Shown here: piece after piece, positions 24,098 through 25,561 of the stretch
Position numbering within the stretch: position 1 is the stretch's first letter
Layout: each line of letters begins with the position of its first letter
Source: Armatimonas rosea
Lineage (GTDB): Bacteria > Armatimonadota > Armatimonadia > Armatimonadales > Armatimonadaceae
DNA length: 64,000 bases
Direction: 5' to 3'
Assembly: GCF_014202505.1 (NCBI RefSeq)
Contig: NZ_JACHGW010000005.1
Location: forward strand, 186,001 to 250,000
Made by a program: the position numbers and the translations under genes
The notes under the pieces: model-generated
Databases searched by the model: none
What the model was told of the DNA's origin: nothing
The model's input: the letters and a program-made list of their open reading frames with translations, nothing else

Positions 24098-24829
24098 ATG
24101 ACAAAACTTAACCAGATCATCGCGGTCGAAAAAGGGGTCAAGACCGCCGCGTTTCAGAAACTCACCGATGTCTACCAGCTCTTGCAGAAGAATGCGCTGC
24201 TCTCCGGTATCTCGCGCACCTACCGCCCCCGTGACGAAGAAGGCGAGTCGCTCCCGCCCGAGTCCACGCGGGTTCAGCTCCGCACCGAGGAAGTGATCAA
24301 GGAAGTCACCGAGGAGCTGACCCGGCTCTTCGATGTCACCGCGACCAAGGAGTGGGCCAACTGCCAGGCTAAGGCCGATGTTCTGGTCGAGGGCACGGTT
24401 CTTCTGAAGGATGTCCCCGCGACCTACTTACTCTTTCTGGAAAAGCAGCTCGTGGACCTCCATACGTTTATTAAGAAGCTCCCTACCTTGGATGCCTCCG
24501 AGAGCTGGGAGTTCGATGCATCGGCCAACTGCTACGCCACCGAGCCCGTACAGACCGTCAAGACCCGCAAGATTCCCCGCAACCATGTCAAGGCGGAGGC
24601 CACCGAGCACCACCCGGCTCAGGTCGAGGTCTACTACGAAGACGTCGCGATTGGCTACTGGCGCACGGTCAAGTTCTCGGGCGCTCTGCCGGCCAAGCGT
24701 ATCCACGAGCTGACGGAGCGTGTCGAGCGGCTCCAGCAGGCCGTGAAGTTTGCCCGCGAGGAAGCAAATAGCCTGGAGGTCACCGACCAAAAGCTGGGCG
24801 CAAAAGTCTTTCAGTATCTGTTTGGATAG
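24098..24829 (+). CDS. Conserved hypothetical protein (243 residues)
   Basis: A soluble protein starting MTKLNQIIAVEKGVKTAAFQKLTD. The segments LFDVTATKEWANCQAKADV, DVPATYLLFLEKQLVDLHTFIKKLP and GALPAKRIHELTERVERLQQAVKFAREEAN are those of a well-conserved uncharacterised family found in Actinobacteria and other phyla. It is probably globular with a C-terminal helical pair; no catalytic motif is evident. ATG 24098 was chosen since GATACT (24083-24088) lies nine bases upstream. A small zinc-ribbon protein gene follows after three bases, so the two likely form an operon. Confidence 0.85.
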   Translation: MTKLNQIIAVEKGVKTAAFQKLTDVYQLLQKNALLSGISRTYRPRDEEGESLPPESTRVQLRTEEVIKEVTEELTRLFDVTATKEWANCQAKADVLVEGTVLLKDVPATYLLFLEKQLVDLHTFIKKLPTLDASESWEFDASANCYATEPVQTVKTRKIPRNHVKAEATEHHPAQVEVYYEDVAIGYWRTVKFSGALPAKRIHELTERVERLQQAVKFAREEANSLEVTDQKLGAKVFQYLFG

Positions 24830-24832
24830 GCT

Positions 24833-25141
24833 ATGAAACTTCTCTTTTGTGGTTACTGCCACGACATTGTCCGCCTGTTCCCTGAACGTCGCACCTGCCA
24901 CTGTGGACGTTCTTGGGGACAGTACCTAGAAGACAATTCCACCACGATCCAGACGGCAAATACCCTCTCATTGGGTATTGCCAATCCTGATTTCTGGAGG
25001 GCAGTTGAGGTTTATCAAGAGTCCCCCGAGCACTTCTCGCCCGAGCTCTCGATGCGTGCTTGGATCAATCCTCTGACGGAAGAAGATGTCCGCTATATCC
25101 GCCCTGAAGACACCTCCCTGGAGAACGCGAAGTCTCTTTAG
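24833..25141 (+). CDS. Small zinc-ribbon-like conserved hypothetical protein
   Basis: A 102-residue protein with CGYC near residues 6-9 and CHC at 22-24 (MKLLFCGYCHDIVRLFPERRTCHCGRSWGQYL), likely a metal-binding knuckle. Beyond it, TANTLSLGIANPDF matches an uncharacterised family of short proteins with the same start. There is no signal peptide or membrane segment. It follows the preceding gene by three bases and is the last gene before the tRNA-like region. Confidence 0.75.
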   Translation: MKLLFCGYCHDIVRLFPERRTCHCGRSWGQYLEDNSTTIQTANTLSLGIANPDFWRAVEVYQESPEHFSPELSMRAWINPLTEEDVRYIRPEDTSLENAKSL

Positions 25142-25160
25142 CGGAGTACAAAGTATCGGC

Positions 25161-25166
25161 TATACT
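25161..25166 (+). promoter_or_regulatory. Possible -10 hexamer TATACT for the tRNA-like transcript
   Basis: TATACT occurs 20 bases after the preceding stop codon and 62 bases before the first T arm. It would start a transcript across both permuted units. There is no clear -35, as for other promoters in the window. Confidence 0.4.
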
Positions 25167-25227
25167 GTGCTTGGAGCAATCCAGACTTAGCTTTAGCAGT
25201 AGCGTGACGGGGAGCTGTGTCCTACGT

Positions 25228-25289
25228 GCAGGTTCGAGTCCTGCCCCCTGCATCTGATCCTTGCAGGGGTAGCCCAACTTGGTAGAGGC
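25228..25289 (+). tRNA. Permuted tRNA-like unit A (T arm + 3' acceptor before 5' acceptor + D arm)
   Basis: In order: T stem GCAGG, loop TTCGAGT, CCTGC (25228-25244); acceptor 3' strand CCCCTGC (25245-25251); discriminator A (25252), no CCA; a 10-base linker; acceptor 5' strand GCAGGGG (25263-25269); TA at positions 8-9; D arm GCCC AACTTGGTAGA GGC (25272-25289). The acceptor strands pair perfectly over 7 bp, but only in this permuted order. No GCAGGGG exists upstream of the T arm. Upstream, GTAG and CTAC could form a long variable arm (25199-25224). Downstream, CTTAG may be an anticodon loop (UAG, Leu), but the anticodon stem is unresolved. The word CAGACTTAG occurs on both sides (25182 and 25307), as a circular permutation born from tandem duplication would leave. 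Confidence 0.7.
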
Positions 25290-25385
25290 GGCAGAGTTTC
25301 CCAAAACAGACTTAGACTCTTGCTCTAGACTAAGCATTTCTTCGTGGATCGCCGGGTCGAGCGAGTCGCGCCGAGAACGCCTGAA

Positions 25386-25440
25386 AGAGGTTCGATTCCT
25401 CTCTGGCCCATCGTGAGGGCCGGTAGTTTATCGGAAAAAC
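25386..25440 (+). tRNA. Permuted tRNA-like unit B
   Basis: In order: T stem AGAGG, loop TTCGATT, CCTCT (25386-25402); acceptor 3' strand CTGGCCC (25403-25409); discriminator A (25410), no CCA; a 6-base linker; acceptor 5' strand GGGCCGG (25417-25423); TA; D arm GTTT ATCGGAA AAAC (25426-25440). The acceptor strands pair over 7 bp with one G-U, again only in permuted order. The anticodon arm is not resolved. CTCTTAA at 25466-25472 looks like a Lys(CUU) loop and its flank TGCGA could pair with TCGCG at 25366-25370 upstream of the T arm, but spacing is abnormal. Two neighbouring units with the same permutation argue against simple decay of one gene. Confidence 0.68.
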
Positions 25441-25503
25441 CAGATGTTATAACGAGTGAGTGCGACTCTTAAACGTGACGGCGTGCTAAGTGCACGATAC
25501 CCC

Positions 25504-25534
25504 GAGGCCGGGAGCTGGTCATGCTCTCGGCCTC
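25504..25534 (+). terminator. Strong hairpin after the tRNA-like region
   Basis: GAGGCCGGGAG and CTCTCGGCCTC form an 11-bp stem (one G-U) around a 9-base loop, followed by TCTCGTTTG. It probably ends the tRNA-like transcript just before murJ. Confidence 0.65.
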
Positions 25535-25561
25535 TCTCGTTTGTGGTAGGATAAGGCTTAT

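What the first reader, a model, noticed from the sequence alone, without database searches (positions are those of the whole stretch)
25141..25540. Two consecutive tRNA-like genes in circularly permuted order
Seen: two textbook T arms (GCAGG-TTCGAGT-CCTGC and AGAGG-TTCGATT-CCTCT), each followed by a 7-base acceptor 3' strand and A. After only 10 and 6 bases come 5' strands that pair exactly with those acceptors (GCAGGGG/CCCCTGC; GGGCCGG/CTGGCCC with one G-U), then TA and a D arm. No linear partner for either half exists nearby. Known: permuted tRNA genes with this 3'-half/linker/5'-half layout are described in red and green algae and some archaea, where they are spliced via a circular intermediate; bacteria are known for permuted two-piece tmRNA, not, to my knowledge, for such tRNAs. 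Inferred: these could be permuted or two-piece tRNAs. The anticodon arms remain unresolved: candidates are Leu(UAG) in A and Lys(CUU) in B, both with unusual insertions between D arm and anticodon stem. The CAGACTTAG repeat on both sides of unit A suggests origin by tandem duplication. A likely promoter and a strong terminator enclose the pair.
Basis: partly seen in the sequence, partly recalled or inferred. Interest (0 to 1): 0.87.

Follow-up and report, generated by a model that had tools for sequence, protein, structure and literature searches.

The report
Twin tRNA-mimic RNA with DUF7873 partner
The two "back-to-front tRNAs" are not tRNA genes but one conserved, unannotated non-coding RNA carrying two tRNA-shaped modules; it occurs in many bacterial phyla and in phages together with one uncharacterised protein (DUF7873), so it looks like a new RNA-protein system that imitates tRNA.

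Summary
The units are two tandem modules (T arm, acceptor 3' strand, short linker, acceptor 5' strand, D arm) of one roughly 370-nt RNA with its own promoter and 3' hairpin. Acceptor and T stems covary (99.1% of cells paired). The gene directly upstream encodes DUF7873. Related RNAs lie just downstream of most DUF7873 genes examined, in six or more bacterial phyla and in phages; where not adjacent they are elsewhere in the genome, 1.8 Mb away in Herpetosiphon. Among 201 genomes of the phylum, strong matches occur in six of seven DUF7873 genomes and none of 194 others; the seventh has a weaker one beside DUF7873. No anticodon is conserved. The nearest known family is YrlA, the bacterial Y RNA tRNA mimic, but both units score far below Rfam's cut-off and about half of DUF7873 genomes lack its protein Rsr. 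Unexpectedly, the unit-B discriminator base is complementary to a 3'-hairpin loop base (HGGN') in 77 of 80 elements. Function is inferred.

The parts
24098..24829 (+). DUF7873 (PF25283) gene, 243 aa: co-occurring partner protein
   Evidence: Pfam 387.8 bits, E 3e-116; co-occurrence; AF2 pLDDT 90 without PDB or viral fold match
25161..25166 (+). -10 box TATACT of the RNA's own promoter
   Evidence: sequence; TATACT-like in L002, L005, L006 by eye
25173..25179 (+). RNA 5' end GGAGCAA, outer-stem 5' strand of unit A; pairs with 25320-25326 TTGCTCT
   Evidence: two variable positions Watson-Crick in 89/100 across 50 elements, 0/20000 permutations
25182..25208 (+). 5' segment with degenerate hexamers (RRCTNA; CAGACTTAG...), conserved, role unknown
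25209..25221 (+). helix extending unit A where an anticodon arm would be; pairs with 25290-25302
   Evidence: 12 of 13 pairs by eye; aligned with the YrlA stem
25228..25252 (+). unit A 3' half: T arm, acceptor 3' strand CCCCTGC, discriminator A25252
25253..25262 (+). linker A, presumed removed by RNase Z and RNase P
   Evidence: predicted; NCCA at this place in 16/57 cellular and 11/21 viral unit A
25263..25289 (+). unit A 5' half: acceptor GCAGGGG, TA, D arm
25320..25326 (+). outer-stem 3' strand of unit A (TTGCTCT)
25327..25385 (+). segment between units and 5' strand of the unit B stem; resembles YrlA basal stem
25386..25410 (+). unit B 3' half: T arm, acceptor 3' strand CTGGCCC, discriminator A25410
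25411..25416 (+). linker B; T25411 and C25412 can pair with loop bases G25518 and G25517
   Evidence: bases 74-75 are pyrimidines in 51/53 cellular and 33/35 viral unit B
25417..25440 (+). unit B 5' half: acceptor GGGCCGG, TA, D arm GTTT/AAAC
25468..25490 (+). conserved CTTAAACGTG-CGGCG, 3' strand of the unit B stem
25504..25534 (+). 3' hairpin (12-bp stem); apical loop TGGTCAT 25516-25522 = HGGN'; T25519 complements A25410
   Evidence: N73-N' complementary in 77/80 elements, 0/20000 permutations, maximum 54

Best explanation
The element is the gene of one conserved non-coding RNA (about 370 nt) made of two tandem tRNA-like modules in permuted order. It acts in trans with the product of the DUF7873 gene, most likely as an RNA-protein particle. 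Shown: permuted modules with covarying acceptor and T stems, further covarying helices where anticodon arms would be, very tight co-occurrence with DUF7873, and complementarity of the unit-B discriminator base to the apical loop (HGGN') of the 3' hairpin. Inferred: the modules are cut by RNase P and RNase Z and given CCA ends, leaving three pieces held together by the acceptor/T/D domains as in two-piece tmRNA; the middle piece's NCC(A) end then docks on HGGN'. Inferred with less certainty: the particle works as a tRNA mimic (YrlA-like), presenting tRNA elbows and acceptor ends to an enzyme or toxin that recognises tRNA. Its place inside phage tRNA arrays suggests a role in tRNA protection, decoy or surveillance.
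For: Covariation: 99.1% paired, 11 of 16 pairs changed on both sides, 0/500 shuffles; unit B acceptor and T stems, the helix below unit B, and N73 with the loop base, z 10.5; unit A outer stem. N73-HGGN': (77/80). Partnership: DUF7873 in 7/201 genomes; full-length R1 matches of at least 79 bits in 6 of these and in 0 of 194 others (best there 44 bits, partial); the seventh (G060) has 40.9 bits just downstream of DUF7873. 18/18 examined DUF7873 genomes have the RNA, including Herpetosiphon aurantiacus with the genes 1.8 Mb apart and G014 11 kb apart, so adjacency does not explain it. Breadth. Processing hints: linkers begin NCCA in 32/55 viral and 25/110 cellular units against about 1/64 by chance; base -1 is T in 38/55 viral units. 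Phage tRNA arrays. No Rfam match at gathering cut-offs.
Against: No transcript, processing or binding data. Unit-B linker bases 74-75 are encoded pyrimidines even where CCA is not encoded, so the N73-loop pairing could be a kissing interaction of the uncut precursor rather than CCA docking. Element CCA does not track CCA-encoding of tRNAs in the same phage loci. Acceptor sequences vary so much that a fixed aminoacyl identity is unlikely. DUF7873 has no recognisable fold, so RNA binding is not shown. Permutation tests ignore phylogeny. No conserved neighbour gene other than DUF7873 was found in cellular genomes.
Confidence: 0.6

Rival explanations
1. A divergent bacterial Y RNA (YrlA class) with two tRNA-like modules that binds Rsr (TROVE protein) and tethers it to PNPase; DUF7873 is an accessory. 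The acceptor stems are closed by the linker loops and are not cut.
For: Both units match RF02553 in the correct permuted register: 32.4 and 24.1 bits in the window, 23-38 bits in relatives, with unit B aligned over the full model. Rsr is encoded in the window's genome and in 26 of 50 DUF7873 genomes.
Against: All scores are far below the 69-bit cut-off, and similar scores arise from tRNA arrays. Rsr was not found in 24 of 50 DUF7873 genomes nor in the single-contig genome G014. Nine of 14 TROVE-bearing genomes among the relatives do not carry the element. The RNA follows DUF7873, not Rsr. NCCA at linkers fits an open end better than a closed loop.
Confidence: 0.22
2. Circularly permuted tRNA genes: the halves are spliced through a circular intermediate into decoding tRNAs.
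For: Layout 3' half, linker, 5' half is that of algal and archaeal permuted tRNAs (PMC3978253); rotated modules pass ARAGORN's tRNA body tests.
Against: No conserved anticodon arm or anticodon; helices lead out of the anticodon position and covary; linear tRNAs for the proposed anticodons are present; tight link to DUF7873.
Confidence: 0.02
3. A tmRNA-like RNA: modules are aminoacylated and the 5' segment is a reading frame (it reads as K/R-L-K/R-L in many lineages).
For: Permuted layout and cleavage logic resemble two-piece tmRNA (PMC3985003); base composition by position fits K/R and L codons.
Against: The genome has a normal tmRNA; no G3-U70 pair; acceptors vary widely; no conserved start or stop codon seen; the middle segment has a similar hexamer style while pairing with the 5' end.
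Confidence: 0.06
4. Remnants of a degraded tRNA array.
For: tRNA-like pieces out of order; phage copies sit within tRNA arrays.
Against: Same two-unit architecture in at least six phyla and in phages, with strong covariation and co-occurrence.
Confidence: 0.01

Closest known systems
YrlA, bacterial Y RNA (Rfam RF02553)
   Same: Permuted tRNA-like module (T arm, acceptor, loop, acceptor, D arm) on a long basal stem; lacks an ordinary anticodon arm; similar basal stem in unit B
   Different: Two modules in one RNA; below Rfam cut-off; follows DUF7873 not Rsr, and Rsr was not found in about half the carriers; linkers often begin NCCA; N73-HGGN' complementarity with a 3' hairpin
Two-piece (permuted) tmRNA
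   Same: Gene order acceptor piece, intervening segment, 5' piece; expected RNase P and RNase Z processing; pieces held by a tRNA-like domain
   Different: Two tRNA-like domains, D stem present, no Ala identity pair, no conserved tag frame, separate normal tmRNA in the genome
Circularly permuted tRNA genes of algae and archaea
   Same: 3' half, linker, 5' half
   Different: No anticodon arm, no sign of splicing, RNA continues beyond both ends of each module
T-box riboswitch UGGN bulge; RNase P L15 GGU motif (own knowledge)
   Same: Loop complementary to the NCC(A) end with the discriminator base covarying
   Different: Here the end is encoded in the same RNA and the loop is an apical hairpin loop at its 3' end

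Membership tests
YrlA (RF02553) | Score at or above Rfam gathering cut-off (69 bits) | tested here: not met
   23-38 bits in window and relatives
YrlA (RF02553) | Permuted tRNA-like module with D, T and acceptor arms | tested here: met
YrlA (RF02553) | Rsr (TROVE) encoded in the same genome | tested here: not met
   found in 26 of 50 carriers; present in the window's genome
YrlA (RF02553) | Basal stem that binds Rsr | tested here: inconclusive
   unit B basal stem aligns over the whole model at low score; binding not testable
Circularly permuted tRNA gene | 3' half upstream of 5' half, joined by a short linker | tested here: met
Circularly permuted tRNA gene | Complete anticodon arm with a consistent anticodon after rotation | tested here: not met
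   unrelated anticodons and introns among 108 modules
Circularly permuted tRNA gene | Circular intermediate or splice junction | not testable with these tools
   needs RNA sequencing
Permuted tmRNA | tmRNA covariance model match and Ala identity G3-U70 | tested here: not met
   only a 23.6-bit local match to cyano_tmRNA; third pairs are A-U and G-C; tmRNA lies elsewhere
Permuted tmRNA | RNase P and RNase Z cleavage into pieces | not testable with these tools
   only indirect: NCCA and U(-1) enrichment
Decoding tRNA | Recognised as linear tRNA | tested here: not met
   0 genes by ARAGORN, 0 Rfam matches

The most novel reading that the evidence does not exclude
A new class of assembled RNA: a single transcript is cut by tRNA-processing enzymes at two built-in tRNA-like domains into three pieces with two CCA ends. 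The pieces stay together, the middle CCA end docks in a cis-encoded HGGN' hairpin loop, and the whole forms a DUF7873 particle that senses or shields tRNA ends in bacteria and is carried by phages next to their tRNA arrays.
Probability: 0.3. Interest if true: 0.93.

Novelty: new variant of a known kind. Interest (0 to 1): 0.82.

Why it matters
It points to a widespread RNA family not matched by Rfam 15 at its cut-offs and ties it to a protein family of unknown function, which gives that family a first testable role. It suggests that tRNA mimicry by permuted modules is not limited to the Ro/Rsr Y RNAs. The discriminator-loop covariation makes CCA-end docking in cis, or a precursor kissing contact, directly testable. 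Carriage inside phage tRNA arrays links it to the question of how phages protect or police tRNA.

Tried and rejected
Permuted tRNAs, tmRNA, tRNA-array debris: see rivals. Missing housekeeping RNA in disguise: rejected because tmRNA and RNase P RNA are present in the genome. Sub-threshold YrlA matches genome-wide: too unspecific, tRNA arrays give them (L047), so not used as proof. Rsr as obligate partner: not supported. Translated 5' segment: period-6 K/R-L pattern noted but no conserved start or stop seen, not pursued. Conserved neighbour genes besides DUF7873: none in 80 loci. DUF7873 function by sequence or fold: no convincing hit in PDB or BFVD. Literature: no paper on DUF7873; the primary YrlA papers are not held. 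A second HGGN' loop for unit A was looked for by eye and not found. A pseudoknot between the 5' and middle segments was suspected by eye and not established.

Full report
1. The observation. ARAGORN and Rfam find no tRNA or known RNA in the window at standard cut-offs.

2. Relatives. A BLASTN search of 60 related genomes found diverged copies in five other genomes of different genera. All carry both units, with compensated acceptor stems, for example GCAGGGG/CCCCTGC in the window, GGTGGGG/CCCCACC in L003 and GCGGAGG/CCTCCGC in L004. In these the same gene lies upstream, except G014 where it is 11 kb away. That gene is DUF7873, PF25283. A scan of public genomes with DUF7873 gave more than 550 relatives, of which 80 loci were kept: Armatimonadota, Chloroflexi, Actinomycetota, Cyanobacteria, Deltaproteobacteria, Acidobacteria. 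A strict motif scan found 111 permuted modules, all on the coding strand and downstream of DUF7873, usually a pair near +100 and +250, and none after shuffling. Phages carry related modules: Gordonia, Arthrobacter, Klebsiella and Rhizobium phages and 50 IMG/VR contigs were examined, most with at least one recognisable module; several lie inside tRNA arrays.

3. Structure. In 33 aligned unit-A sequences the T stem, acceptor stem and D stem are paired in 99.1% of cells; all seven acceptor pairs and four of five T-stem pairs show changes on both sides; no shuffle reaches this and slid versions fall to 45-60%. The D stem itself does not vary and so says nothing. Mutual information over 47 full elements recovers, without prior structure, both acceptor and T stems and a long helix below unit B. 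The 5' GGAGCAA pairs with TTGCTCT in the middle segment; its two variable positions are Watson-Crick in 89 of 100 cells. There is no ordinary anticodon arm: each module opens into these helices. The same analysis produced an unexpected pair: the unit-B discriminator base with the base after GG in the apical loop of the 3' hairpin. A separate extraction confirmed it: T-A 47, G-C 26, A-T 4, three exceptions in 80 elements, permutation maximum 54. In the window these are A25410 and T25519. The loop HGGN' is complementary to N73-C74-C75.

4. Partnership. In 201 genomes of the phylum, DUF7873 occurs in seven. The unit-A covariance model scores at least 79 bits in six of those and in no other genome; the seventh (G060) has a 40.9-bit match just downstream of its DUF7873, while the best score elsewhere is 44 bits, a partial match. 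All 18 tested DUF7873 genomes, including those without an adjacent copy, have a match (40.9 to 102 bits). In Herpetosiphon aurantiacus (CP000875) it stands alone 1.8 Mb from DUF7873. Co-occurrence without linkage argues for action in trans. These counts are not corrected for shared ancestry.

5. What it is not. It is not a set of tRNAs: rotated modules give unrelated anticodons, and the genome has linear Leu(UAG) and Lys(CUU). It is not tmRNA or RNase P RNA, which are elsewhere.

6. Nearest family. YrlA, the bacterial Y RNA, has the same permuted module; it is described as a large basal stem plus a tRNA-like domain resembling the D, T and acceptor arms, tethering Rsr to PNPase (PMC8394870; PMC7790460). 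Both units match RF02553 in the right register at 23-38 bits, about half or less of the 69-bit cut-off. Rsr was not found in 24 of 50 carriers. I therefore do not file it as YrlA, while holding that it probably works like YrlA as a tRNA mimic.

7. Mechanism. Supported indirectly: linkers begin NCCA in 32/55 viral and 25/110 cellular units, and base -1 is T in 38/55 viral units, as expected of 3'-processing and RNase P sites. Against a firm conclusion: bases 74-75 of unit-B linkers are encoded pyrimidines in nearly all genomes, so the loop could instead pair with the uncut linker. Two-piece tmRNA is the precedent for cutting such a layout and keeping the pieces together (PMC3985003). DUF7873 is predicted with high confidence (pLDDT 90) but resembles no known fold. 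The phage tRNA-array context suggests tRNA protection or surveillance; this is inference.

8. Verdict. A real, conserved, apparently unannotated RNA with a dedicated protein partner. My estimates: about 0.95 that it is a functional structured RNA of this architecture, about 0.9 that it functions with DUF7873, and about 0.4 for cleavage into pieces with CCA docking.

Noticed in passing
G000 C8:146457-146588 (locus L050/L268): About 450 nt upstream of the TROVE (Rsr) gene lies a linear tRNA-like sequence (GGAGCG...CGCTCC) with a long insertion whose CCGAAGGTGACGGTTATC part recalls the Ro-binding stem of Y RNAs; possibly this genome's true Y RNA.
   Followed up: partly
L049 (G014 C1:1457500-1462000) and L048 (G018 C591): Permuted tRNA-like modules, some with the acceptor stem capped by a GAAA tetraloop, interspersed with uncharacterised ~230-260 aa proteins; no Pfam TROVE hit in these genomes.
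   Followed up: partly
L052 (G007), L053 (G060), L054 (G030): Permuted tRNA-like (YrlA-like) modules about 0.5-1 kb from TROVE genes: likely ordinary Y RNAs of this phylum, below the Rfam cut-off.
   Followed up: partly
G036 C30:5909-6250 (L215): Run of four weak matches to the unit-A model in a genome without DUF7873; may be a Y RNA cluster or tRNA array.
   Followed up: no
window 25182-25208 and 25305-25325, and the same segments in relatives: Degenerate hexamer (RRRYTN) pattern that reads as K/R-L codons in many lineages (e.g. KLKLKPKL); coding, protein-binding or pairing role unresolved.
   Followed up: partly
L142 1384-1912 (Gordonia phage GodonK): A tmRNA match (90 bits) with the record's 'tRNA-His' annotated inside its span; that annotation is probably wrong.
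   Followed up: no
window 24833-25141: Small protein (102 aa) with two CxxC-like motifs between DUF7873 and the RNA; no Pfam family.
   Followed up: no
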